From Dichotomocladium elegans (taxonomy: Eukaryota; Mucoromycota; Mucoromycetes; Mucorales; Lichtheimiaceae): DNA of 64,000 nucleotides. The stretch lies in assembly GCA_025716815.1 (NCBI GenBank), contig JAIXMN010000009.1:744001-808000 (forward strand), given 5' to 3'. Numbering within the stretch: position 1 is the stretch's first letter; every line of letters begins with the position of its first letter. Both the position numbers and the translations under genes were made by a program. The notes below the pieces were generated by a model. The model was not told where the DNA came from and ran no database searches. It saw only the letters and a list, made by a program, of their open reading frames with translations. Shown here in pieces: positions 20,915-54,702 of the stretch.

Positions 20915-23900
20915 CTAATTCTTGTCATTGTCCTCTCCGGTACTTTCTAAAACATCTGCCCAGACCTTCTCCGCCACATCCTTTGACACATCAGGGAAGC
21001 AGACCTTGAAGACATCATCATAATAGTCCACTGGGATGCCGGTCATCCCCTCCTTGATATGGTCAGCAAGTTCTTCCCAATCTGAAAGGTTGTCTTTGGG
21101 AAACAAGATAGTGTTGATGTTGGACCGCTTTGCAGCGATGGTCTTCTCCTTTAACCCGCCGATCTTCAGCACTTTGCCGGTCACAGTGAGTTCACCTGTC
21201 ATTGCGATGTTGGGGTTCACAGGATGGTTAAGGGCCAAGGAAACGAGGGATGTAACCATGGTCACGCCCGCAGAAGGGCCATCTTTTGGAACCGCTCCTG
21301 CCGGGCAGTGGAGATGGACACGCGCTTTTTCAAAGAACTTGTTGCCAGGGAAGTGCGTAGCCATAAGGGACTTTGCATACGTGTAGGCGATAGTAGTAGA
21401 TTCTTTCATGACATCTCCGAGCTGGCCGGTCTTCGAAAGTCCAGGCGTCGACTTTGGCGACAAGGATGACTCCAGCACTGACTCAATGTACAAAGAGGAC
21501 CCGCCTAGAAGAGAGGAAGAAAGGTTGGCAAACATAACGATAAAATGATCTACAACATACCCATGCTCGTCCATGCTAAGCCCATAATTACACCAGGAGG
21601 AGTATTCTCATAGATTCGATCGGATTGGAATATTGGCGGACCGACATAGTCCTTGAGCGACTCTGGAGTAATATCGAGTTTGATGCTTTCGGGAACAGCC
21701 AGCGGCTTGCGCTCCTGTTCAACTTCTTTTTTACCCTCTTTTTGGTGCTCTGATGCTGTGGCCTCCTCCTTCTCATCTTCGCCAATCTGTTCAACCACCT
21801 TGTATCCAGCTTTTCGGAATATTTTGTCAATGTGCTTCTTGAGATTGCGTACGCCACTTTCGCGGCAGTAATTCTTGATGAGCGCGTCAATAGCATCGGG
21901 TGTTAAGTTAACGTTCGCACCATCAAGACCTGACGCGACCTTTGCGGCAGGAGCAAGATATTTGGATGCAATGGCAGCCTTCTCTTCAGCGATGTATCCG
22001 GAAAGCTGGATCACTTCCATACGATCTAGCAAAGGACCAGGAATGGTATCGAGCACATTCGCTGTGCATACGAAAAGGACCTTGGATAAGTCAACAGGTA
22101 CATCCATGTAATGATCCAAAAAGCTGCTGTTCTGTTCGGGATCAAGAAGTTCGAGAAGAGCTGATGATGGATCGCCTTGATGACCACGACCGATCTTGTC
22201 AATTTCATCGATGAGAATCAGCGGATTCTCCGTCTTAACCTTCTTAAGTGCCTGGATGACCTTGCCAGGCATCGCACCAACATAGGTGCGACGATGTCCT
22301 TTGATCTCGGCAACGTCGGTCAAGCCACCCACAGAAAAGCGATAAAACTCTCGGTCCAACGCGCGAGCAATGCTCTTGCCAATGGAAGTCTTACCGACTC
22401 CAGGAGGACCGGAAAGACAGATGATCTTTCCTTCAACAGTGCCACGGAGCTTCCCGACCGCGACAAACTCCAAAATACGATCCTTGACATCCTGTAAGCC
22501 GTAGTGATCTTCGTCGAGCACTTTTCTGGCGTGCACAAGATTGTAATTCTCATGGGAGCGTTTACCCCAAGGCACCTGTGTGAGCCAGTCAAGATAATTG
22601 CGTGTCACATTGAACTCTGATGCTGCAGGCTCCAAATGGGCAAGCTTGGTAATTTCCTATAATGAAATTCCATAAACAACTGGTCATCCTAGAAATATGG
22701 GCTTTTTCTTTTACCTCATCAAACACTTTTTTCACTGTTTCAGGCATGGATAGCTTGGTTGCCTTTTCTTTGAATCCTTCTACAAGCTTGTCTTTGCCGT
22801 CACTCTCAAGGCCAAGCTCCTTTTTGATCCCCTTCAATTGCTCCATCAGGTAATACTCGCGTTGTCGCTTGGCAATCTTATTTTCGACATCCTTAGAAAT
22901 CTTATTCTGCAGTTGCGCATTCATAAGTTCTTTTTTGAGGACAACCAATGCTTTCTGAAGTCGTTCCTCGATAGGCAATGTCTCCATAACCTCTTGAAGC
23001 TCCAGTGGCTCCCCTGTTGAAACAGCAGCTGCGAAATCGGCCAATTTCGAAGGTTCCTCAAACACATTACCAGCAGATTGGGACATGGAGAAGCTGGCAA
23101 TCTGATCGCGGAAGAGTGGATTGAGCGAAGCGATTTCCTTAAAAACAGAAACAATCTCGGAAGTAACGGCACGAATAATAGGATCCTTCTTGTCGTATGG
23201 TGGGTCAATGAGGTTTTCGACGTTTACTAAGGAAACAGCGTGTTCATTCGCCAGGAACGATGTCGCATACTGCTGGGTCTCGCTAGATTGTTCGGCGGTT
23301 TCGTGCACTTTGACGTTCTCAGGTGCTAATTGAGCCAATCAGTGGATTATGTTCATCTCGATGAAAATATACTTATGCGTACCTGATCCTTCTACTGCTT
23401 TGTCTTCAATATGATGTCCTTCCGCTTGTATAGTAGATTCGTCTTCTTGGATTTCTTTCACCTTGACAGCAGCCGGGATCTTCCCCTGTGTGTTGATTAA
23501 CTCGGTAATCTTGATTCGTCGATGGGGATATAGTACTGCTGTCAATCCGCCCTCGTCATCCTTATTTTTAGAGGTCCCGCTGCCACCACTAGCCGGAAAT
23601 ACACTCGTAATCTGAGCAAAAACACCAACATCGTACACTTGATCGAGATTGGTGATGGTATCTGTATCGATATTCTCATCTTTAAGTAAAAATGCGCCCA
23701 CATAGGGCTGACCACGCTTCAGGAGCTCTTTGATGGCTGCAGTCACATTTGGGTCCTTGACAACAACGGCCTTGTAGAATCCTGGAAACAACGGCCGTCG
23801 AGCAATAGGTACTGCTAATACTTGAGGATACACATCTGGTACAGTCGGTTTTTGGAGCTGGTTCTCGATCACATTGAACGCGAGTCGTGACGATTTGTCA

Positions 23901-24286
23901 TCACCGTCATTCCCACCATTGCCATTATGTCCTGCACCGCCTGCTGCTTCCGATCCACCGGCCCCGTCAGGCATGGATGAGGATCCATCGCCTGCAGGAT
24001 CCCGTTTTTTGAGTTGCATTGTGCTGACATGGCGTTTAAGAGCTGCTGCACTACGAATGGGCTGAAGAGCAACAAAGACTGAACCGGTGCCACGAGTCTT
24101 TAATGAATGAGCAAGTGAGTTGGTCCCCCAGATTGTAACTGTTGCTCGAGCGCCAGCAGCCGAAGAAAACGAGCGTTTGGAGCTGGCGGTAAGAGAAGCT
24201 GTGGGACTCAACTGGGATGCGATCGCATTATTGAGTTGCGATCGAGTGATCTTCTTGGATACGTGGACTAGAATTGAATGGTTCAT
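20915..24286 (-). CDS. PIM1: Mitochondrial Lon protease (4 exons)
   Basis: ATP-dependent serine protease of the mitochondrial matrix that degrades misfolded/oxidised proteins and maintains mtDNA. Exons 23383-24286, 22715-23325, 21561-22656 and 20915-21504; joined 1066 aa, close to yeast Pim1 (1133 aa). N-terminus [20 protein letters not shown] is a basic presequence; a Gly/Asn/Asp-rich linker (~residues 110-140) precedes the LON substrate-binding domain ([20 protein letters not shown]). The AAA+ module shows Walker [10 protein letters not shown], Walker [11 protein letters not shown] and an arginine-rich sensor region ([18 protein letters not shown]). The proteolytic domain carries the Ser-Lys dyad: Ser in [11 protein letters not shown] and Lys in [13 protein letters not shown] charged insertion ([20 protein letters not shown]) before the protease domain matches fungal Pim1. 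Confidence 0.95.
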
Positions 24287-25240
24287 TTTTCCAAACCTTC
24301 CAATTGACAATTCTATCAAGCTAGAAGGATTGGGGAGAGAGTAAGGAAAGCAAACGACGTAAAAATGAAGCGGGATAAAGAGTGGCTGACTGGGTAGATG
24401 CTCCACCCTGGTGCGAACTTCCCATCGAAGAGGCCACAGAACTCCGATGCATTGAGCAGTTCCAGTAAGTTCTATCTATCGTTTTGATACGCCATGGCGC
24501 GGAACCTTGATGTTTCTTCAACCGCACACGCTGTTTCCTCAAGCTTCGATAATGCCCCGTCCATTTGTCTCTGATGCCGTGGGACATGGACACAATTTAC
24601 CTCTTTCCAATTTTCAACTCTCATTGTGACGAAAAGGAAGTCTTCCTTTAGATTAACTCTTCCGATATAAGACTGCATCGCTTTAAGGCTTTGTCAATTC
24701 TTTCATTGATTCATAGATCCCGTGATATATGCTCTATCTGCCTGAGAAACACTTCGCTGGAATCATTTTCACGTCTCTCCCCCTATGGGCGTTTACTGGA
24801 GGGTGATCTTTTGTCGAGTCAGCATTAGTTCGGTGGCACAATCGCCGACCATGCTATCCCGCCCGTTCTCCACGGATTATCACAACATGATGAACTCGTT
24901 TGTTTTTTATGCGAATGTGTCTGTAATACTCTTGCCACTGACGTTTCTACTATCGAGCTGGCTGCCCCCGAGGTCCGCAGCTACTGTTCACAGAGAACGC
25001 TCTTTGACAGGGCTTTGAGGGAGAGGGTTTAATGGCCGCCTATCCTCCATCCTGCATCCCGATCACCGTACTACCACCAGCGCGCTAAACAACCCCAGCC
25101 TAACTGCCCGATCTTTCTCTTCCGCCATGGGTGAGGACCGATGCTTATCACGCTAACAGCATTCTATTCTCCCCTCGATTCCTTTGATCCCTCATTTTTT
25201 ATGCTCGTGGGAATTAGTAATCCCATGTTGTCGACGAACA
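24287..25240. other. Intergenic region upstream of Lon, no gene recognised
   Basis: About 950 bp containing the Lon promoter and the left flank of the first mobile element. Short frames here (for example 24785-25018) have no recognisable motif and are not called. Confidence 0.45.
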
Positions 25241-25433
25241 TACAGTGTTTTCAAATTTTATTAAAGTCGTACCCCAGCCAGTTCTGAAGTCGCAGGATTA
25301 CAAAAATAGAAGTCGTGTTTTGCCCAGAAATCTTTACGCATGATGACAAAGCAAATGTCGCAATACACGGCGAAACTTGGCAAATTCATCTCTACCCATT
25401 TACATTCTGAAATGAGCAATCTATTTTTTTACG

Positions 25434-26450
25434 ATGGTCAAGGCCATGTCGTTGATGAAGAAATGTACTCTGCAATCCGTTTGTTCTCATACAGAATATC
25501 TGCTTAGCATATCTTGCAAAGATAACTTTGAGCTTATTGCCACGCACATTCCCAAGAGAAAGGATACAGACATTCGGATGAAAAAAGCGGGGATCAAGCG
25601 CAGTTACACAGCGTACACTGACCAAGACAAGATCAGATTTTTCAAGCTGATGTCTGAGAAGGTATTGAGTGCATCAGCTGCTAGGAATCCATGTTCGTTC
25701 AGCTCAGCGACGGACATCACAGTACGGAAAGGACCCTGACAGCATTTTTAAGAAAGTAGAGGCAGAGGTCGTTCATGTATTCTCAACGAAGAGGATAAGA
25801 GTGTTATTTTAGAATGGGTTGTTGAGAATCCGTCAATTGTCCTAGAGCAGCTGATGGAACAACTGCTCCAGTGATTTAAGAGTCTCAAAGTATCCAAAAC
25901 GACGCTCCATCGATTTATGAAAACCGAATGCAATTTGTCATTGAAAATGGCTCGGTTTCAGCCTGTAGACAGGAATAGCGATGCAAAGGTCCAAGAACGC
26001 CTTGATTGGGTGCGCAGACGGGACAGGACCGACATCGACATTAGAGAAAACTGCGTTTTTCTTGATGAGTCTGGATTCCATATTAACATGAAGCGCAGCA
26101 TGGCATGGTTCAAGAAAGGGACTTGTGCAGTAGTTACAGTGCCGAATGCAAGAGTAAAAACAGCTACCATCTTGGGAGCAATCTCGGCATCAGGCATCAT
26201 TAAATGTAGCTTGAGACTCCCACGACCACTAGCCAAAGAAGAAACAGAGCGGGGCAGCCCGCAGCTGCAAGCAAGGAAACTATCACTGGACATTATTATC
26301 TCAGCTTCCTTAAGGCTACCATGGATGAAATGGATAAGCATGAACATCTGAAGGTATCCGCGTGGCTACATTGTGATGAGCACAATTGTTCCATCAAAAA
26401 AGTTGATGTATAAAGGAAACAAGGATGAAAAAATGCAGTAGTAGAATGTT
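25434..26450 (+). pseudogene. Tc1/mariner-IS630-like DDE transposase remnant, copy 1
   Basis: Broken frames together resemble the IS630/Tc1-type transposases common in Mucorales. The N-terminal part (IPKRKDTDIRMKKAGIKRSY) leads to a helix-turn-helix region (KIRFFKLMSEKVLSASAA). A frameshifted middle follows (about 25740-25915; VLEWVVENPSIVLEQLMEQL-like in fragments), then the first catalytic Asp context ENCVFLDESGFHINMKRSMA and TATILGAISASG. The second catalytic block expected after MDEMDKHEH (a DNAPIH-type motif) is absent, and several stops and frame changes interrupt the gene, so it is inactive. The first 300 bp is nearly identical to the remnant at 50.3-50.7 kb. Confidence 0.8.
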
Positions 26451-26745: not shown

Positions 26746-26966
26746 TGAGGTTCGACCAAGCCGTTTTTCTTTACCACTTGCGTATTCTAAAACCCGTCAC
26801 AAACACACTCGTATTACACATCTCTCTCACCTTACACAACTCATACAACCCAAGGCGAAGAACACAAAAGCACATTCCGACATTAGGACGGTAAGGCTTC
26901 TGGAATAAGACATGACTAGAAGATTTGTGCTAAGAGATAATATCACAGCCCTCTACTGGTGAAGAC

Positions 26967-29151
26967 ATGGAACAACCTGTCGACCCCACCAGGAGGAGGG
27001 GCGTAAACCCTGCCCAACCCAACCTCAGGCCCCCTGACCGTATGTTAGGTGTCAAGACCTCTATACGAGGCATCCGCTGGAACGCCGCCTACCGCCAACT
27101 GTTGATGGACTTGGTCGCTGTTGTCCATGCGACAACAACCCATGCGTACAGCTTCGCCAAGTACATCTTCCTACGTAAGCGCGAACGCGAGCCGGACTTC
27201 AACCTCCAACAGTTCCTGCACGAAAAGTTCTTCTCTGAGGTGTGGCTCTCCATGCTCGACAAGCGAGTTCGTCCAACCCGGGGGTTTTCCGGCGAGTGCC
27301 GAGCTCTGATCGGCGAGTTTTTGGAGGATTACCTCGAGGCCACCCAGTACCAACGGCCGCAACTCAAGAATTCCCAACAATGCTCTGCGTTCGAAGGTAA
27401 GAAGATGTTTGTTGCATACTGCAGCAATATCAACATGCGGTTCGGGCAGCACCTTCGGCGCGCGGTGAATGCTCTCCTGAACATTCGAGAGCGGAAAGCG
27501 GCGAGGAGACGTGAACTGGACGCACTCGGCTGGACCGAGGAGCAAATCCGCCAGGATATTTACGACACCATCACTCGCCATGCCACAGGCTTCAAGCTCG
27601 CCATTGCCCGCCGAGGTGTGCGGAGGGATGACATTCCGGCGGAACCAGCTTTCCTCAGGCAAGCGTTCGACCAGATCCAACCGGTCTTGGATGCTTATCC
27701 CCAAGGGTACCAGTTCCAAAAACAAAGCATCTACTACGACGCCAAGGCGCGTTCAGCCAACCACTTCCGGCCGTTCATAGAGCTTGCATATGTTTTCCAA
27801 CGCAATGGTCTTCGCAGCTTCCAATGTTTTCCGCTTCGCCGATCCTGGGCCCCTTGCTATATGCAGATCGACACCACGATTCTTGTCCAGCATATTCTAA
27901 AGAGGCCAAGACACAACATCAGCCAGAAGTTGGCTCTGTGGGGAGAGGTTGTGGACTTCAACTCTCGTGCTTTCAGACCCCAGGAAGGCGGAACGATCGA
28001 GTTCCATGGCACAATCCATACTGATGGAGTAGGCGTCACTGTTTTCAAAAGGACAAACAATCAACGACCATCATATGGAGCAAAGTACCGAGGAGTCGAG
28101 GACCAATTATGTCAACATGCTGACATCACAGGAACACCAGAATATTGCTGGTAGGTGCGTCACCGTCGACCCTGGGAGGAGGGACCTCCTTTTCTGAGTC
28201 TCAGAGAATTCCAGGCCGGAGCGAGGTGCCCGTCTGACGTTCCGATACTCCAAACCTCGTCAGGACAAGGTGCGCAAGAGCAAGAAGTACCGCAGGTTAT
28301 TGCAGAGGCTCAAGAATGAGGAACCTGAAGTCGTGCATGCCGAGGAACGCATGGCTGGCGAGCATTCCCGCGGCTTGGATCGTGCCGATTATGACCGCTT
28401 CCTGCTTGTCCGGTCCCAGGTGTCCCAAGTTCTCGAGGACTTCTATGCGAATACTGCCACCCATAATGCCGCTCCCCAACCTCTTTTCCGAAAGCTCCGT
28501 CTGTCGTCGTACATCAACAAACAACGAGCAGATGAGAAGCTGAGGGACGGTCTGATCAACAAGTTTGGCCCCAACGCGGTATTTGTGATGGGTAATTGGT
28601 CTGCCCCGAACACTCGATACCACGAGCCAATCCGCGGTGTTGGATTCCGGCGACTTCTCAAGCAAGGCGAACGTCGCTTTGATGTATACTTGATCGACGA
28701 ATTCAAGACCAGCAGATGTTGCCCCGCGTGCGAGACTGAGAGCCTTTCTACATTCCGGAGGGTACCCAACCCACGCCCCTATCGAAGAGCCGAGAATCCA
28801 AACGTTATCTGTCATGGCCTGCTACGGTATGAAGCCTTATTCGCGGAGGAGTTTGATAATCTAATGTCGCTTATTTTGTGCAGATGCTCAAATCAAAACT
28901 GTACAGCAGGCATGGCAGAGGGCGCTCCTCGGCAGCGATTGTGGAACCGTGATATGGCGGCCTGCCTGAATATGATACATATTCTCAGGAGTTTTCGGGC
29001 CGATGGCATGGTCCCGGAAAGGTTTCGGCGAGCACCTGCGGGTGGTGACAGGCTCCTAGCAAGAAGGGCTAGATCACCAGAGCCCGACGAGCGAAGGGTT
29101 AGACGAAGAGGATCAGGGCGGCCAAGAGGACCAGGACGAGGTCACCAATAG
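26967..29151 (+). pseudogene. Fanzor (TnpB-like RNA-guided nuclease), copy 1, in-frame stop after RuvC-I
   Basis: Eukaryotic TnpB homologue of the Fanzor type, a family shown to be RNA-guided DNA endonucleases carried on eukaryotic transposons. N-terminal frame 26967-28154 contains the wedge/REC-like part (GVKTSIRGIRWN, FFSEVWLSMLDKRV, MRFGQHLRRAVNALLNIRER, TRHATGFKLAIARRGV, FPLRRSWAPCYMQIDT, FHGTIHTDGVGVTVFKR). The RuvC-I motif VTVDPGRRDLLF lies in the +1 frame (Asp codon 28168-28170) and is followed by TGA at 28195. The same frame continues to 29151 with RuvC-II LIDEFKTSRCC, a CxxC...CxxxxC zinc ribbon split by a GT-AG intron (28827-28883), RuvC-III RLWNRDMAACLNM, and an Arg-rich GRPRG tail. 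A splice at 28151-28215 would restore the frame but remove RuvC-I, so automatic models may hide the defect. Confidence 0.9.
28827..28883 (+). other. Intron inside Fanzor zinc ribbon, copy 1
   Basis: 57-nt GT-AG intron interrupting an Arg codon between HGLLR and CSNQNC. Copy 2 has an intron at the identical codon and phase (53102-53166, 65 nt) with unrelated internal sequence, so the intron predates the divergence of the two Fanzors. Confidence 0.85.
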
Positions 29152-29153
29152 CG

Positions 29154-29207
29154 ATGATTTTCCGTGTCGGTTATCGCCGGCACACATCTGGATACCTTCG
29201 GGGTAAG
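29154..29207 (+). ncRNA. Candidate Fanzor guide-RNA scaffold, copy 1
   Basis: Immediately after the Fanzor stop: stem GTGTCGG (29164-29170), loop TTATCG, stem CCGGCAC (29177-29183), then a second small hairpin TACC-TTCGG-GGTA (29192-29204). Copy 2 has the same arrangement (53469-53488 and 53510-53521) with compensatory stem changes and an identical TTATCG loop. In TnpB/Fanzor systems the guide RNA overlaps the 3' end of the gene and runs to the right end of the element. The fold and covariation are seen; the function is inferred. Confidence 0.6.
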
Positions 29208-29339
29208 TTAAAGTGTTGGGGAAGGGATACTATTTTCTGGTGACTAAAATCTCTCAACCAATCGATGTGAAATCCTTTCCATCTTGATACGCCATTTTAT
29301 TTTATTTTCATGCGACATAATTTTTCCCCACCTGCGAAA

Positions 29340-29360
29340 TTTATTTTTGAAAATAAAGTA
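29340..29360 (+). repeat. Conserved palindromic right end, copy 1
   Basis: TTTATTTT-TG-AAAATAAA-GTA, an 8-bp perfect inverted repeat shared base-for-base with copy 2 (53710-53730). It supplies AATAAA on both strands and ends only 3 bp before the stop codon (29364-29366, minus strand) of the neighbouring mannosidase. Confidence 0.7.
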
Positions 29361-29363
29361 TCT

Positions 29364-31743
<2,380 letters not shown>

Positions 31744-41552: not shown

Positions 41553-43820
41553 TCATCTTGGTGTCCCAGGCCGATAATGGTTATCAAATATTACCATGTC
41601 GTTTGACGAGTAGCCTGCATTGTGGAAATCCATGCCTAACCCTTGCTCGGCAAGGACAGCCATGATGTCCTCTTCTGTAAAGCCTTCAGCGATGTTAATA
41701 TTAAAAGCAGAATTATTGCCTGCATAAGAGCGGTGTAGAAAAACAGAGCCGATCAGTATGAACATTCTCACACTCAGAAGAATAATGAATATGTTACCGC
41801 CATAGAGCACATTGTCAATGGTAGAGTCCATTTCGGTTTTGGCTTCAGAGCGTCCAGGCGAAATGGCGGAGGATGACGGCGACGTATTTTCCTGTTCTAC
41901 GGTATAGTCATCAAAGGGATCCCTGTCGTCGTCTCGGTCGGGTGTAGCCAGCGCAGACGATGTAAATGGCGCGTAGTTTTTCGTTCGCCCATATGCGTTG
42001 AAGGGCCGATAGCGGTTCGTATAGGAAGAAGAGAGCTGGGCGCCATAGTTGTTTGTATTGTTGCTCGGCGATGAGGAGAGTACGGAGTGATTGTTTGGCA
42101 TCGACGATGAATAGGGTGGGTTTTGTGTTTTGGGCGAGGATGCCATTATTCGGGGTGAGCCTGGTGTCGCATAGGGGGAATATCGGCGCGAGTGCTGCGC
42201 GGCTGATAAGGGTGGCGATCCAATGTGCATATTGGCAATGGATCGATTCAAAGACATCGTGACCGAATTGGGCGAGCCGGGATGTGTTAACAATGAATTT
42301 GGCATAGACGAAGCGTTCGCTCCAGCATCACCCATCAATGGAGATCGGGGCATCGCATGGATCGTCATTGGAGACGAGCCCTGGTACGAGCGAGGGCGGG
42401 TGGGCTCTTGGCGGGGTGAGGAGGCAGGCGGCGGCTGAGAGTGACGTTGCGCCTTGCCGTTCCGTATAGACTTTATCAAGTCGCGCTCATCCTGTAGGCG
42501 CTGGACAAGAACCACTTTCTTCCCAGTTGCTGGCTTCCCGCGTTGTCTCAGCATCTCCTTGAGTTCCGATACCGTAATATCGTCAAAGTTCACCTTTTCA
42601 AGCTGGTCGTCGAGCTGTCTCTGATGCTGCTCGGCATCGACGGGAATCGCATTAGTTGCCCGTTGCACGCGCTGAATCTGAATAGGCATTGTGCGTGAAG
42701 GAAAGGATGCAGCATGTCCTCCCCGGTCCGTGCTCATCTCCTGACTATTCCGGAGAGGCGATGTGCCTGCAAGAAAAACAGCTTCGTTATCTATCCGACC
42801 GGTAGACAAAGTGGGAACCGAAGATCCAAAACTTGCGGTGGGGAATGCTTGCTGTGAGGACGTCGACAGCTTTGTAGAAGTTTTCTGAGCAGCTTGGCGG
42901 TTGCCGCTTCCGCTGCCGCCGGACTTTTTATAATTAACTCTAAATCTCGCCTGTAACTCGTTCTGCCGGCGTTGATGGTCTATCTCCGACGATCTGCCGT
43001 CGCCGGCGTCGTAGGAGGAGGAGATGGGTATAGGGCTGCTAATCCGTTTCGGTTTCGCGGATACAGCAGCAGGGGACATTGGACGAGAGGAAGAAGTATT
43101 TTCGGCGGTCTTTCTGGGTTTTGCATATGCCTGCAGCGTAATGTTCGGAGCGGGCGTTGTGGGCGGATAGGAGAGGAGGATATCATCATCGTTGACGTCC
43201 AACAGAAGATCTCGCTCAAGGCGATGGCTGGAGCCTATGGTATTGTCAAATTCATCGAAAAGAGCAGATGTATTCGATGCGTTGGGACCATCCATATACT
43301 CCTGCTGGGCTTCGCGCTGGAGCGTTTCCCGCTGCTGTTCCTGCAAAAGCTGCTGCTGTCGTACAAAATTTGGGTCAGATAGAAGGATGTCCTGCTGACC
43401 GAGAGATAAAAACATATCAAGATCTTGTCGCGGTTTGCCATCAAAGGAAGATAAAAACTGATTCTGAGCAGTATTGTGGTTGTAACTAGAGCCGCTAGTG
43501 TTGGTGTCCCAGGTCGGCACGTCCTTATAAAAATCGTTCATGTATATATCTTGACCAGATAACGAAAGCAGGGTGTCTTGGGAACAATGAGGGTTTTGCG
43601 AACTCAGCTTATCGTCATATTGGTAATAGATTGCATTGTCACCCGCTGTATGCTGAAATTGCTGGTGTTGCTGTTGCGATGAGGAGGATGAGTTGGTGGG
43701 CTGAACGGGAAATGAATAGTTTCCAAGGTCTATGTTGGTATCCTTCGCACTGCGATTGTTTGGAATGGCGCTTGAATTGTTGTAATTATCGGAAGTATTC
43801 CCACTCTCATAGTAGAACAT
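41553..43820 (-). CDS. SAP-domain protein, Gln/Ser-rich, probable nuclear nucleic-acid-binding protein
   Basis: A long frame encodes up to 755 aa. The N-terminal ~380 residues are Asn/Gln/Ser-rich and disordered. A SAP motif follows at about residues 405-440 (ITVSELKEMLRQRGKPATGK then KVVLVQRLQ), a helix-extended-loop-helix typical of DNA/RNA-binding chromatin or RNA-processing proteins. The C-terminal part is Ser/Pro-rich with many SP sites, ending in an acidic segment (EEDIMAVLAEQG). A consensus GT-AG intron (41720-41797) lies in frame without stops; removing it joins VLYG to NNSAFNINIAEG and gives about 729 aa. The specific function is unknown. Confidence 0.75.
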   Translation of the reverse strand: MFYYESGNTSDNYNNSSAIPNNRSAKDTNIDLGNYSFPVQPTNSSSSSQQQHQQFQHTAGDNAIYYQYDDKLSSQNPHCSQDTLLSLSGQDIYMNDFYKDVPTWDTNTSGSSYNHNTAQNQFLSSFDGKPRQDLDMFLSLGQQDILLSDPNFVRQQQLLQEQQRETLQREAQQEYMDGPNASNTSALFDEFDNTIGSSHRLERDLLLDVNDDDILLSYPPTTPAPNITLQAYAKPRKTAENTSSSRPMSPAAVSAKPKRISSPIPISSSYDAGDGRSSEIDHQRRQNELQARFRVNYKKSGGSGSGNRQAAQKTSTKLSTSSQQAFPTASFGSSVPTLSTGRIDNEAVFLAGTSPLRNSQEMSTDRGGHAASFPSRTMPIQIQRVQRATNAIPVDAEQHQRQLDDQLEKVNFDDITVSELKEMLRQRGKPATGKKVVLVQRLQDERDLIKSIRNGKAQRHSQPPPASSPRQEPTRPRSYQGSSPMTIHAMPRSPLMGDAGANASSMPNSLLTHPGSPNSVTMSLNRSIANMHIGSPPLSAAQHSRRYSPYATPGSPRIMASSPKTQNPPYSSSMPNNHSVLSSSPSNNTNNYGAQLSSSYTNRYRPFNAYGRTKNYAPFTSSALATPDRDDDRDPFDDYTVEQENTSPSSSAISPGRSEAKTEMDSTIDNVLYGGNIFIILLSVRMFILIGSVFLHRSYAGNNSAFNINIAEGFTEEDIMAVLAEQGLGMDFHNAGYSSNDMVIFDNHYRPGTPR

Positions 43821-50060: not shown

Positions 50061-50319
50061 TTTCCATACGCGAAAGGGAAGCGGAAAATGCACTGTGAAA
50101 CCCGGGTTCGGGTGTAAAGTAACTCCTCCCCCACCCCAAGAAAAATTGCATTATTTTTCAAAATCAAAAGTCGCAGGATCGCCCGAAATCTTTACGCGTG
50201 ATGACAAAGCAAATGTCAGATACATACAGGGAAAGATGTCGCAAATCCATCTCATCCTTATGACCCTTTCTCTTATAAACTTTTACATTCTGAAATGAGC
50301 AATCTATTTTTTTACAACG

Positions 50320-51088: not shown

Positions 51089-51258
51089 TGATGCTCAAGC
51101 AAACTGTCCCTTTCCATTATCCACATACAAAACTAGAGCCCATACAGCCTACAGAAAATAACACAGCACCACATTTACGGTTGAAAGGTAATACGGCCGC
51201 TTTCATACTCGTCTCTGCGATACTAAGAAATAATATACCCTAGGTCTTCACCCACCAA

Positions 51259-53449
51259 ATGGCCCAACCCCACCGCCCCGTCATTCCCGAAGGCATGCGC
51301 ACTGGCCACAACATTGACGGCACTGGCCGTATAATTGGGGTGAAATCGTCCATACGGGGCATCGGCTGGCGACAGCAGTCCCGTGAACGTCTGTATCAGT
51401 TGGTCGACCTTGTCCACAACACCACAACGCAGGCGTACGCGTTCGCCAAATATATTTTCATCAACGAGGCAGCGCGCGATCCAAATTTTAACATCCAGGA
51501 AAACATCACGGAGAAGTTCTTTTCAGAAGTTTGGCTCTCCATGGTTAACAAAGCCGAACGCCGCACCCAAGACGAAACTGCCCGCATCCGAGAACTAATT
51601 AATCGCCACAAGGATGAGTACCTTCGGATATCCGGATACGACAGGCCTGCGTTCCCTTATTCCCAGCAATGTTCTTCTTATGAAGGCACCAAGATTTATA
51701 CTGCTTACGTGAATAATGTCCACATGCGGTTCGGGCAACACCTTCGGCGTGTCATCAATGTCATCCTGAATCTTCGTCAGCGAAAAGCCGACCGCAAGCG
51801 AGAGTTAATCGCACAGGGCCTAAGCCCCGATCAAGTACGCCAGTACCTTTATGAAACCATCACCCGGCATGCCACAGGATTCAAGCTAGCAATTGCCCGT
51901 CGAGGTGTTTTGAGGGAAGACATTAATGCCGAACCTGGATTTCTTCGGGAAGCATACGATATCCTACAACCTGTCTTAAACGCTTACCCCCGAAACCACC
52001 AATTCCAACACCAAAGTATCTATTACGACGCCAAGGCCAATCCTGTTAAGCATTTCAACGCCTCCTTCCAGCTTGCACGTGTTTGTCAACAGAACGGAAT
52101 ATGCGGATTCAACTGTTTTCCACTTCGTCGCTCGTGGTCACCATGCTACATGGAGATCGATACGAAAATCCTTTGCTACCATATCCTGGGCTGCAAAATG
52201 GAATCCCACACAAGCAATATGGAATACTGGAGACGGGTTGTAAACCTGAAATCAAGAGCTTTCAAATCCCAAGAATCCGAGCTGCTCCAATTCCGTGGGA
52301 CTATTCACACTGACGGCGTCGGTGTTACTGTGTTCAAGACAAATGGCCTTCAATCGGGTTTCGGACAGAGATTTGGCATCCAGAGCGAAGATAGCGAGTA
52401 CGTCACCCCACAGATAGTCCGAACGAAGGCTATAGAGGACAATGGGTCACCATTGATTCTGGCAGAAGGGACCTGTTGTATTGCGTTCATGAGAACTCTT
52501 CACCCGACAACCACCAGACCTTCCGATATACAAAGCAGCTTCAAGATCATACACGGAAGACCAAATGGTACCGCAGACTCCGAGAACGACTCAAGTTAGA
52601 GCGACCCGAGGTCGCGTTGGCTGAGCAGAATCTATCCCAATTTCAAAGTCATACGCTTTCCGTGCCCAACTACGACGGATACCTCGCCGCCAAGAACAGG
52701 GTCTCTGTAGTTCTCAAGTCTTTCTACGCGACAACCACTACGAACAACCCGGACCCACAATTTCTTTTTCGAAAACTTCGCCTGTCAGCGTTTTACAAGA
52801 AGCAGCAAGCAGATGAAAAGCTTCTCGACTCTTTGAATGCGAAGTTTGGCAGTAGGTCCGTTTTCGTGATGGGAAATTGGTCTGCGCAGCATACAAGATA
52901 TCACGAACCTATCCGTGGTGTCGGCTTCCGGCGGCTGTTGAAGAAGAACAATTGCAATATTTATTTGATCGACGAGTACAAGACAAGCAAGTGCTGCCCT
53001 ATATGTGACAATGAAAGCCTTGCTACCTTTAAAATGGTTCCTAATCCACGCCCATATCGACGACCCGACAATCCGCTCACGATCTGCCATGGCCTGCTAC
53101 GGTATGAAGGACGGGCATGTTGTGTTATATTTCCAAAAAGATTTTGATATTTTGATGTTTTAATAGATGCACAAATCAAAACTTTACAGCAGGCATGGCA
53201 GAGTGTGTTTGTCAACCAAGGTTATGGAACCGGGATCTGGCGGCGGCTCTCAACATGCATCATATTCTCCGGGGTCTTCGGGAAGATGGTATCATCCCAG
53301 CAAGGTTCCAGAGAAGAAATGCTGCACAAGCGTCCGCAGCTGGTGGAAGACCACACTCACCTGAACCAGAGCAGCGCAGCGTGAGACCACGACGGGCAAG
53401 GCCAGGAAGGCCACGAGGTGCACGCTCTGGCGGGTCGAGACGACCGTAA
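51259..53449 (+). CDS. Fanzor (TnpB-like RNA-guided nuclease), copy 2, possibly defective
   Basis: Homologue of the Fanzor at 27-29 kb, colinear throughout but clearly diverged. N-terminal frame 51259 to about 52400: VKSSIRGIGW, FFSEVWLSMVNKAE, HMRFGQHLRRVINVILNLRQ, TRHATGFKLAIARRGVLRED, CFPLRRSWSPCYMEID and FRGTIHTDGVGVTVFK. RuvC-I (WVTIDSGRRDLLYCVHE, Asp codon 52455-52457) is two bases out of frame. Either a frameshift occurred or a 56-nt GT-AG intron (about 52357-52412, weak donor) is removed; the latter gives an uninterrupted protein. RuvC-II is LIDEYKTSKCCPIC. The zinc ribbon is split by intron 53102-53166, but its last Cys is Phe (CTNQNF instead of CSNQNC). RuvC-III is RLWNRDLAAALNM. 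The tail is Arg-rich with GRPRG. Confidence 0.88.
53102..53166 (+). other. Intron inside Fanzor zinc ribbon, copy 2
   Basis: 65-nt GT-AG intron at the same codon and phase as in copy 1 (28827-28883); donor GTATGAAG shared, interior unrelated. Confidence 0.85.
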
Positions 53450-53460
53450 CCCCAACCAAG

Positions 53461-53545
53461 AACTTTCCGCGTCAGTTATCGCTGACGCACCCAGGATAAC
53501 CACAGCCCTTCGGGGCAAGCCCCCTTCCTTTGGAAGGACGGTGTG
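53461..53545 (+). ncRNA. Candidate Fanzor guide-RNA scaffold, copy 2
   Basis: Stem GCGTCAG (53469-53475), loop TTATCG, stem CTGACGC (53482-53488): perfect 7 bp. Then GCCC-TTCG-GGGC (about 53510-53521), a perfect UUCG tetraloop hairpin, and a further CCTTCC/GGAAGG stem (about 53526-53539). The first stem differs from copy 1 at two pairs by double compensatory changes (U-A to C-G, G-C to A-U) plus one U-G to U-A, while the loop is unchanged. Confidence 0.6.
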
Positions 53546-53631
53546 TTGTAAGTCAACGGGATTGGAGAAGGCGTAATGTTTTCTGCTGACTAACAGGGTT
53601 TCATCCATGGATGCGATATCTTTTTACCTAT

Positions 53632-53730
53632 TGATACGACAAATTTATATAATTCTATGCGACATTTTTCTTGTATTTTGCACGACATTATTTTATCTTG
53701 TTTACGACATTTATTTTTGAAAATAAAGTA
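53632..53730 (+). repeat. Iterated CGACA units and palindromic right end, copy 2
   Basis: Four units of the form (A/G)CGACA + T/A-rich tail (about 53635, 53660, 53683 and 53704) lead to the palindrome TTTATTTTTGAAAATAAA and GTA at 53730. Copy 1 shows three degenerate units in the matching place. The reverse complement (TGTCG) mirrors the AAGTCG units at the left ends, as expected of subterminal transposase-binding repeats. Confidence 0.55.
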
Positions 53731-54702
53731 CTGCATCGACAGAACCGTCCTCACATTCCCCTTTACACTTTGACTTACCAACCCCCCCCCGGCTAACACC
53801 CAGGCGTATCCAGGTGTGGGCACATGGGGATAACCATTGCGGAGGAGCGGTGGTGCGCCGGGAGCAAGGACAGGCAATACGGCGAGACAACGAATGAAGC
53901 AGCGGCAGACACAAAGCACGAGCAAAAGCCAGAAACAACGGCAGGACCACACCGGGGAGGCCACAGTGGAGGACACGAAGCCGGCGAAAGGGGAGAGCAC
54001 TTGGGGTGGAAAGCAGCGCCGAAGTGAAGTTAGGGAAAGACGCAAAAAAAAAAGAAAAGGCCCTGCCCGAAGCCAGCCAAATCGCGCCCGCTCCCCCGGA
54101 CAGAAGATGTTAGATGCGAATAATGAGCAAATCCTTATGAAGATTCATACAGAATTACCCATGGAAGAGAGGCCGAGGAAGGAAGGATTTGATAAAGAGA
54201 CAATGCTGAAACAAGTACCCTGATGTATTAAATGATATCCTCCTTCAGAAGACTACATCTACGATTCTCATCGCTGTTATTTCGAGATACTTCTTGTGTA
54301 TCAGTCTACAGTTTTGGTGCAGGCAAGTTTAAACGGGCCCTTTGGTTTTTTCATATTGTCATCATGATGATCAAGATATACATAGGCGATGACTCAGCTG
54401 CGAAGCACTGCACCAGGCATAATCCACTTTATCAGAATGTCGCGTTATTTTGCGTATTAAAACCACTACTGCATCAAACTTGTTATCTCATATCAATGAA
54501 CATATACCCACCAAAGATCTCACCACCCTTCCTCTGCATGAAAGTGCTCTTTGTCATCATGCGTAGAGATCTGTGGGACAAAACGCGACCTCTATTTTTG
54601 TGATCTTGCACTTTTGGGAAACGGTGTATTACAGGGTGTATTTCCCCCCACTAAAATAATCGAAATTTACACAGGGATGCGTTGTTTTAAAATTAAATAC
54701 AT
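53731..54702. other. Right flank of Fanzor element 2; unassigned frames
   Basis: About 970 bp. An open frame at 53837-54223 (+, 128 codons; very basic and Gln/Arg/Lys-rich, RRKKKRKGPARSQPNRARSP) has no recognisable family and may be chance or a remnant. The rest holds nothing I can identify. Confidence 0.4.

What the first reader, a model, noticed from the sequence alone, without database searches (positions are those of the whole stretch)
29164..29204. Covarying hairpin just downstream of both Fanzors: candidate guide-RNA scaffold
Copy 1 has GTGTCGG-TTATCG-CCGGCAC (29164-29183); copy 2 has GCGTCAG-TTATCG-CTGACGC (53469-53488). Two stem positions changed on both sides to keep pairing (U-A/C-G and G-C/A-U) and one changed compatibly (U-G/U-A), while the loop is identical. 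Such compensatory change indicates selection on RNA structure. Its position directly after the Fanzor stop matches where omega/fRNA scaffolds lie in TnpB and Fanzor elements.
Basis: partly seen in the sequence, partly recalled or inferred. Interest (0 to 1): 0.92.

Follow-up and report, generated by a model that had tools for sequence, protein, structure and literature searches.

The report
Fanzor guide RNA completed by splicing
The hairpin is very likely the first stem-loop of the guide RNA of a fungal RNA-guided DNA cutter (Fanzor), and sequence signals shared by several families of these mobile elements suggest that an intron ending exactly at the element's edge is spliced out to join the guide RNA's handle to neighbouring host DNA.

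Summary
The hairpin and its compensatory changes are real. The exact copy-1 hairpin occurs 17 times in the genome; a pattern blind to pairing finds 214 places (reversed control 28). On 64 distinct strings SL1 covaries strongly (score 0.55; slid controls at most 0.15). Contig lengths point to Dichotomocladium elegans (Mucorales). The closest solved relative of the proteins is Parasitella parasitica Fanzor1. A 7-bp SL1 preceded by UCC, with loop UUAUCG, fits published Fanzor1 omega-RNA.

In published Fanzor1 RNAs scaffold, target-site duplication and guide are contiguous. Here the scaffold ends 156 nt (copy 1) or 181 nt (copy 2) before the element's right end. In five families with a readable right end the gap looks like an intron: a GTAAGT/GTGAG donor after stem-loop 2, a branch motif, almost no AG, then AG as the element's last two bases before TA. 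Removing it would close stem-loop 2 with TA and make flanking host DNA the guide. In family 4, scaffold and gap lie on the strand opposite to the Fanzor gene, so they are not just its mRNA tail.

There is no RNA evidence; splicing is inference (about 0.6). SL1 as omega-RNA scaffold is about 0.95.

The parts
25241..25242 (+). Copy 1: left TA of the target-site duplication; left flank reads CATA
   Evidence: copy1 LE..GAACATA|CAGTGTTTTC; matched to family-2 left ends by eye
25243..25270 (+). Copy 1: left end of the element, starts CAGTGTTTTC
   Evidence: by eye
25875..26351 (+). Copy 1: remnant of a DDE_3 (Tc1/mariner/IS630-type) transposase
   Evidence: PF13358 E 1.3e-5, 25.5 bits, below the curated cut-off of 28.6; frame
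26934..28154 (+). Copy 1: Fanzor1, N-terminal open frame (contains HTDGVGV)
   Evidence: PpFz1 (9cf0) E 1.9e-61; frame
28198..29151 (+). Copy 1: Fanzor1, C-terminal open frame (LIDEFKTS, zinc finger, LWNRD); reads through an in-frame intron-like stretch
   Evidence: PpFz1 E 2.6e-38, SpuFz1 E 2.8e-22
29158..29163 (+). Copy 1: UUUUCC, 5' side of the scaffold (compare U5 C6 C7 of SpuFz1)
29164..29183 (+). Copy 1: SL1 of the omega-RNA, 7 bp, loop UUAUCG
29193..29202 (+). Copy 1: proposed SL2 up to the exon end: UACC-UUCG-GG|
   Evidence: folding support weak for this family
29203..29358 (+). Copy 1: proposed 156-nt intron, GTAAGT ... AAAG, AG-free after the branch motif
29241..29247 (+). Copy 1: branch-point-like TGACTAA
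29359..29360 (+). Copy 1: right TA of the target-site duplication, predicted last two bases of the scaffold
29361..29380 (+). Copy 1: predicted guide, host flank TCTTTATTTGTACGGCCATC
   Evidence: inference (family homology stops at 29360/29361)
50149..50175 (+). Copy 2: left end (CATTATTTTTC), preceded by TG, not TA
51244..53449 (+). Copy 2: Fanzor1 in several frames (51244-52599, 52395-53147, 53156-53449); described only, not mended
53464..53488 (+). Copy 2: UUUCC plus SL1, 7 bp, loop UUAUCG
53497..53547 (+). Copy 2: proposed SL2, UAACCACA ... UGUGUU|, with inner hairpins
53548..53728 (+). Copy 2: proposed 181-nt intron, GTAAGT ... AAAG; branch motif TGACTAA 53587-53593; one AG at 53595-53596 beside it
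53729..53730 (+). Copy 2: TA at the right end
53731..53750 (+). Copy 2: predicted guide, host flank CTGCATCGACAGAACCGTCC
   Evidence: inference

Best explanation
The hairpin is stem-loop 1 of the omega-RNA (fRNA) of Fanzor1 elements in the mucoralean fungus Dichotomocladium elegans, mostly carried by Tc1/mariner-like transposons (one family has other ends). The scaffold is UUUCC, SL1, linker, SL2. In families 1-3 it follows the Fanzor stop on the same strand; in family 4 it lies on the opposite strand, head to head with the Fanzor frame. It ends 156 and 181 nt before the right end in the two window copies. A spliceosomal intron fills the gap: the 5' splice site abuts SL2 and the 3' splice site is the last AG of the transposon. 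Splicing removes the terminal-repeat region, brings the TA target-site duplication next to SL2 so that UA closes the stem, and makes the flanking host sequence the guide. Each new insertion would thus receive its own guide as a new 3' exon. The Fanzor could then cut the empty donor or allelic site and so keep the transposon in place. Shown: SL1, its covariation, the Fanzor identity, element ends and the sequence signals. Inferred: transcription, splicing, guide use and biological role.
For: SL1. Fanzor1 identity. Agreement with published SL1 and layout. Intron signals: of 77 unique SL1-bearing segments in hand, 50 had both a GTRAG and a recognised right end (recounted). AG after the branch motif: 0 in 13 of 14 family-1 rows, 6 of 7 family-3 rows (the older L126 has one), 2 of 3 family-4 rows (L116 has no branch motif), 1 of 1 family-5 row and the older family-2 relative L088; 21 of 24 family-2 rows have just the one AG beside the branch motif. 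GA, the reversed dinucleotide, occurs 4 or more times in 11 of 14 family-1 and 24 of 24 family-2 rows, but only 1-2 times in young family 3. Shuffle test for so few AG: P 0.0018 to 0.026 for each of nine representatives. Five left ends read outward carry 2-4 AG in 79-130 nt; 19 of 22 identified left ends begin CA, so read outward they end in TG, whereas right ends end in AG|TA in nearly all copies read. Stem closure (register chosen by me): pairs 1-5 of SL2 fit the spliced joint in 5,5,5,5,5,4,4,4,4 of 5 for F1, F5, F4, F4-L116, F6, F2, F2c, F3, F3old; in F1 and F5 the fifth would lie in the tetraloop, so 4 are real. Pairing with the right end itself fits 2 of 5 in F2 and F2c. Pair 3 is C-G where the exon ends in G (F1, F3, F4, F5) and A-U where it ends in U (F2, F6), although the last element base is G in F1-F5. 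Folding gives the spliced SL2 pairs probability 0.71-0.97 in F4-L109 and 0.43-0.71 in F4-L116, at most 0.25 unspliced. In family 4 the scaffold and gap are on the strand opposite to Fanzor in 2 of 2 loci examined, so the intron cannot be a Fanzor-mRNA intron there. Published Fanzor1 RNAs include the TSD in the scaffold and reads extend beyond it.
Against: No RNA data. Eight host introns read by eye are 56-58 nt (three in Lon), 57 and 65 nt (Fanzor coding) and 78, 83 and 120 nt (RAD51; the 120-nt one with a GC donor); lengths. The proposed introns are 53-193 nt, 45 of 50 of them 130 or more, with branch-to-AG distances mostly over 85 nt. Family 2 has an AG right beside the branch motif, which would give a 49-nt intron ending inside the element. 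Folding gives the spliced SL2 only 0.05 in F1, 0.25-0.35 in F5 and 0.11-0.16 in F6; the junction-crossing stem is in the best fold of F2 only when flank is added, and not in F1 or F3. An automatic scan finds equal or longer stems without splicing in F2 and F6. Copies that do not fit: L114 exon ends GCG, L168 exon end does not pair, L048 TAGC; donors L119 and L170 GCAAGT, L018 GTAATT; right ends L029 AA|TA and L127 CG|TA; F6 has many AG and no readable right end. F1, F2, F4, F5 and F6 share intron ancestry, so they are not independent. The right-end pattern required AG|TA. Family-3 left ends show no clear TA duplication.
Confidence: 0.6

Rival explanations
1. Omega-RNA scaffold without splicing: a long RNA of about 205-270 nt runs from SL1 to the right end, the right terminal repeat itself forms the 3' strand of SL2 (as the inverted repeat does in SpuFz1), and the guide is the flank.
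For: Published Fanzor1 RNAs use terminal repeat and TSD as scaffold and GtFz1 has a 150-nt RNA. 4 of 5 SL2 pairs fit this way in F1, F3, F4 and F5.
Against: Only 2 of 5 pairs in F2 and F2c; it does not explain GTAAGT beside SL2, the branch motif, or the scarcity of AG; F1 copies show many internal deletions of this stretch.
Confidence: 0.23
2. Scaffold with a fixed, element-encoded guide: the RNA continues unspliced past SL2, so that the 5' part of the gap is the guide; or, in family 2, a 49-nt intron ends at CTAACAG and the guide is internal.
For: PpFz1 has a guide segment at nt 50-58 of a 75-nt RNA, and an unspliced F1 scaffold plus guide would have similar spacing; the family-2 CTAACAG gives an intron of host-like size.
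Against: All families would share a guide beginning GTAAGT or GTGAG; published Fanzor guides lie beyond the right end or TSD; of the families seen only young family 2 has the near AG.
Confidence: 0.1
3. The hairpin is omega-RNA but the intron is an ordinary 3'-UTR intron of the Fanzor mRNA with no role in guide formation.
For: Short introns occur in the Fanzor coding region.
Against: In family 4 scaffold and intron signals are on the strand opposite to Fanzor; the acceptor at the exact transposon edge and the stem closed by TA would be coincidences.
Confidence: 0.03
4. The hairpin is a DNA-level or mRNA-level signal (transposase site, 3' processing), not omega-RNA.
For: It lies near the right end in both window copies.
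Against: Family 3 has different ends yet the same SL1 design; the stem varies while pairing is kept; it matches published SL1; in family 4 it is not behind the Fanzor gene.
Confidence: 0.03

Closest known systems
PpFz1 omega-RNA, Parasitella parasitica Fanzor1 (PDB 9cf0-9cf3; Xu et al. 2024, PMC11423790; sections 5 and 11 and passages read)
   Same: Closest solved protein; SL1 of 7 bp; one short SL2 (4 bp in PpFz1, 4 bp proposed in F1) and then the guide near nt 50; TAM 5'-ATN-3', compatible with the ATA left flanks here.
   Different: That paper has no occurrence of intron, and splic occurs twice, once about cyclophilins and once in a reference.
SpuFz1 omega-RNA, Spizellomyces punctatus (Saito et al. 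2023, PMC10432273; sections 7, 10, 17 read)
   Same: RNA downstream of Fanzor; U5 C6 C7 before SL1 and U-x-U-C-G among its SL1 nucleotides; guide is variable flank.
   Different: There the 75-nt scaffold spans the right inverted repeat and is contiguous with the guide; here 156-181 nt separate scaffold and flank in the window copies.
Fanzor1 reRNA with TSD in the scaffold (Yoon et al. 2023, author name recalled; PMC10711439, passages)
   Same: TSD is part of the scaffold and the RNA extends about 15 nt beyond it.
   Different: Contiguous in the DNA there; only after the proposed splicing here. intron and splic: 0 occurrences.
Fanzor1 in Tc/mariner elements with TA duplications (Bao and Jurka 2013, PMC3627910, passages)
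   Same: Same carrier type, TA duplications; Fanzor1 listed in Mucorales.
   Different: intron: 0 occurrences; no guide RNA in the passages seen.
IStrons (group I intron with IS605/IS607 transposon; PMC4227781, search listing only; Zedaveinyte et al. 2024 on introns against guide RNAs, seen only as a reference, not held)
   Same: Splicing combined with a transposon of the TnpB world.
   Different: Self-splicing group I ribozyme; here spliceosome-type signals that would build the guide RNA. No Rfam match in 28900-29600.
Circular omega-RNA isoforms in archaea (PMC12558985, abstract and passages)
   Same: Omega-RNA with unusual processing.
   Different: Circularisation in archaea; the passages seen describe no joining of scaffold to guide by splicing and no Fanzor.

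Membership tests
Fanzor1 omega-RNA (fRNA/reRNA) | Lies just downstream of, or overlapping, a Fanzor1 reading frame | tested here: met
   families 1-3. Not so in family 4: opposite strand, head to head, 2 of 2 loci. No Fanzor match in the 3.9 kb before one family-5 copy (L131)
Fanzor1 omega-RNA (fRNA/reRNA) | SL1 of seven base pairs | tested here: met
   published feature read
Fanzor1 omega-RNA (fRNA/reRNA) | Conserved RNA structure (covariation) | tested here: met
   for SL1; SL2 only by hand comparison of families
Fanzor1 omega-RNA (fRNA/reRNA) | Scaffold contiguous with right end/TSD and guide in the DNA | tested here: not met
   SL2 ends 156 nt (copy 1) and 181 nt (copy 2) before the TA; would be met only after splicing
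Fanzor1 omega-RNA (fRNA/reRNA) | Sequence after the TSD varies between copies | tested here: met
Fanzor1 omega-RNA (fRNA/reRNA) | RNA is expressed and bound by Fanzor | not testable with these tools
   no RNA data held
Fanzor1 protein | RuvC D-E-D motifs and zinc finger | tested here: met
   HTDGVGV, LIDEFKTS/LIDEYKTS, LWNRD seen and in the PpFz1/SpuFz1 alignments; catalytic residues of SpuFz1 named; mapping by eye
Spliceosomal intron | 5' splice site consensus | tested here: met
   GTAAGT in F1, F2, F4, F5, F6; GTGAG in F3; decayed copies vary
Spliceosomal intron | Branch motif and AG-poor tract up to the acceptor AG | tested here: met
   exceptions: one AG beside the branch motif in young F2; L041, L126; F6 not readable
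Spliceosomal intron | Host-typical length | tested here: not met
   eight host introns by eye 56-120 nt; 45 of 50 proposed introns are 130 nt or longer
Spliceosomal intron | Spliced RNA observed | not testable with these tools
   no RNA data held
Tc1/mariner transposon | TA target-site duplication | tested here: met
   6 of 6 family-2 pairs with an intact left end, of 10 pairs fetched; copy 1. Copy 2 has TG on the left; not clear for family 3
Tc1/mariner transposon | DDE transposase | tested here: inconclusive
   DDE_3 25.5 bits against cut-off 28.6 in copy 1
IStron | Group I intron | tested here: not met
   no Rfam match in window 28900-29600 at E<=1

The most novel reading that the evidence does not exclude
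Fanzor1 elements of a mucoralean fungus build their guide RNAs by spliceosomal splicing: the donor site follows the scaffold, the acceptor site is the last two bases of the transposon, and the host DNA beyond the insertion becomes the guide-bearing exon, so that every insertion automatically programs its own nuclease.
Probability: 0.58. Interest if true: 0.95.

Novelty: new variant of a known kind. Interest (0 to 1): 0.82.

Why it matters
If true, it is a way of making a guide RNA that the papers seen here do not describe: the spliceosome joins a scaffold to an arbitrary genomic guide, using a transposon edge as the acceptor site. It would explain how a nuclease that needs its scaffold beside the insertion site can live in a transposon whose long terminal repeat must occupy that place, it may help Fanzors to spread among transposon classes, and it could serve as a design for guide RNAs made from spliced transcripts. 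It also warns that Fanzor RNAs may be missed if loci are searched only for a scaffold touching the right end, or only behind the Fanzor gene.

Tried and rejected
Rejected: chance hairpin. Rejected as main reading: fixed internal guide, ordinary UTR intron, DNA-level signal (see rivals). TAM signature from flank asymmetry: left flank ATA in 19 of 22 identified family-2 left ends (8 of the 30 fetched were truncated or other), but right flanks also prefer T after TA (by eye), so ordinary TATA target preference explains it; I claim only compatibility with PpFz1's ATN. Viral contigs: no relative found. Rfam: no match. An automatic best-stem scan of SL2 does not by itself favour splicing in F2 or F6. 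Pfam alone misses the Fanzor; the PDB search shows it. A formal host splice-site profile was not made: RAD51, Lon and Fanzor gave eight introns by eye. The five-pair table used short family strings that I wrote down from earlier outputs, in the register that I judged best; the script stopped with an error on its last row (L127), after the rows that I cite were printed.

Full report
What was claimed and whether it is there. The copy-1 hairpin occurs 17 times in the host genome, with no match of the reversed control. A pattern that fixes only TTCC, TTATCG and a final A and leaves both 7-nt arms free occurs 214 times against 28 for its reversed control. Among 64 distinct strings copied from the listings (the listing shows 100 of 214), 37 form at least six of seven pairs, against 9.2 on average when arms are exchanged. 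The pair count gives a covariation score of 0.551 against 0.246 for shuffles and at most 0.151 for slid pairings; two of its five measures do not exceed the shuffles. Several different stems appear: GTGTCGG/CCGGCAC (F1), GCGTCAG/CTGACGC (F2), GGCCCTG/CAGGGTT (F3), GTCCTGG/CCAGGAC (F4), ACCATTG/CAATGGT (F5), and a decayed ATGCTGG/CCAACAC (F6, one copy, L117).

What the neighbours are. The two frames before copy 1 match Parasitella parasitica Fanzor1 (E 1.9e-61 and 2.6e-38) and SpuFz1. Upstream in copy 1 is a weak DDE_3 transposase match. Protein hits on contigs of the same lengths as ours name Dichotomocladium elegans (contig lengths; taxonomy). The 3' region of copy 2 has 40 scored matches of 339 candidates, all at 95-100% identity; 37 of them reach query position 285 or beyond and three stop at 255. 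That family looks recently active. Copy 1's family is older: 43 matches, 71-100% identity.

Where the element ends. Homology of families 1 and 2 stops at ..GAAAATAAAG|TA. Family-2 left ends mostly read ATA|CAC..; 6 of the 10 left/right pairs fetched have an intact left end and all 6 have TA on both sides. Copy 1 reads CATA|CAGTGTTTTC on the left, copy 2 TTG|CATTATTTTTC. Family 3 ends ..GCAAATAATAG|TA; its left end CTACAGG.. has no clear TA duplication, so its carrier may differ.

The gap. In SpuFz1 the 75-nt scaffold spans the right repeat and continues into a 14-15-nt guide; Fanzor1 RNAs take the target-site duplication into the scaffold. Here SL1 and SL2 end well before the edge. In F1, F4 and F5 SL2 is a UUCG hairpin and GTAAGT follows it immediately. 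Downstream come TGACTAA, TGCTAAC or TCTAAC and then a tract with almost no AG until the element's final AG. Of 77 unique SL1-bearing segments in hand, 50 had both a GTRAG and a recognised right end; the other 27 were truncated, decayed or cut by the fetched stretch. In those rows (recounted) AG is absent after the branch motif in 13 of 14 F1 rows (L041 has one), 6 of 7 F3 rows (the older L126 has one), both F4 rows with a branch motif (a third, L116, has none), the older F2 relative L088, and the F5 row L119 (whose donor place reads GCAAGT; L122, read, has GTAAGT and no AG). F2 carries one AG right beside the branch motif in 21 of 24 rows; the other three have more, one of them (L068) because the script took an earlier branch motif. 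Shuffles of nine representatives give P between 0.0018 and 0.026 each. The mariner-type families share ancestry; F3 (P 0.003) is the nearest to an independent case. Five left ends read outward contain 2-4 AG in 79-130 nt, and 19 of 22 end in TG, not AG.

What splicing would make. Joining the exon end to TA closes SL2: UACC-UUCG-GG|UA (F1, F5), UACUC-UUCG-GAG|UA (F4), UAACC..GGU|UA (F6), UAACCACA..UGUGUU|UA with one mismatch (F2), UGCU or UACU..AG|UA (F3). The third pair follows the exon's last base (C with G, A with U) and not the element's last base, which is G in F1 to F5 (register chosen by hand). Folding supports this stem well in F4, moderately in F5 and poorly in F1 and F6, where competing stems are preferred; it appears for F2 only with flank, and F2 can also pair unspliced. 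Some copies do not fit (L114, L048, L168). So SL2 is suggestive, not proof.

A separate RNA in family 4. There the scaffold, donor, branch motif and acceptor cannot be part of the Fanzor mRNA, so the intron signals go with the guide RNA and not with the coding transcript.

Doubts. Nothing here is RNA evidence. Eight host introns read by eye are 56 to 120 nt long, so introns mostly of 130-182 nt with a far acceptor are unusual for this host. The near AG of family 2 could make a short intron with a fixed internal sequence after it. The long-loop reading without splicing remains possible for F1, F3, F4 and F5.

Literature. Sections and passages of Saito 2023, Xu 2024 and Yoon 2023 were searched for intron and splic: none concerns the guide RNA. 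Searches of the held open-access library listed no paper whose title or abstract start speaks of a spliced Fanzor or TnpB guide RNA, but several lists were capped (40 of 82, 20 of 25, 10 of 127, 10 of 2012). Two listed papers were checked by passages: archaeal circular omega-RNAs and an algal giant-virus paper; neither describes this. IStrons were seen in a search listing and as a reference only. Subscription papers and supplements were not available.

Verdict. SL1 of a Fanzor1 omega-RNA: about 0.95. Guide attached by splicing at the transposon edge: about 0.6.

Noticed in passing
L114, L130 (C31:292285-295730) and L110, L132 (C2): Family-4 elements carry a decayed Fanzor on the strand opposite to the guide-RNA scaffold, head to head, so the RNA would need its own promoter.
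   Followed up: partly
window 29203-29358, and L016, L017, L023, L030, L036, L038: Family-1 copies carry many different internal deletions between scaffold and right end; some keep donor, branch motif and acceptor (L036: 53 nt left), others lose them.
   Followed up: partly
window 53595-53596: Young family-2 copies have an AG beside the branch motif (CTAACAG), which older relatives L087 and L088 lack.
   Followed up: partly
L153-L167, L069-L078: Family 3 has different ends (CTACAGG.. / ..AATAATAG) without an obvious duplication, so the same type of omega-RNA seems to ride on another kind of transposon.
   Followed up: partly
L131, L122 (C35): A family-5 copy has a transposase-like frame but no Fanzor match in the 3.9 kb before its scaffold; possible ghost element served in trans. 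The host RAD51 gene lies further upstream.
   Followed up: partly
window 20915-24406, minus strand: Host Lon protease gene with three short introns (56-58 nt by eye).
   Followed up: partly
window 41553-43820, minus strand: 755-aa protein whose relatives carry a SAP domain (PF02037) and occur across Mucorales.
   Followed up: no
G000: C2:763573, C30:602773, C30:868980, C35:155730: TTCCTTCTCCGTTATCGGTCGCGTA recurs exactly at four listed places and matches the pattern but does not pair; probably another repeat, not an SL1.
   Followed up: no
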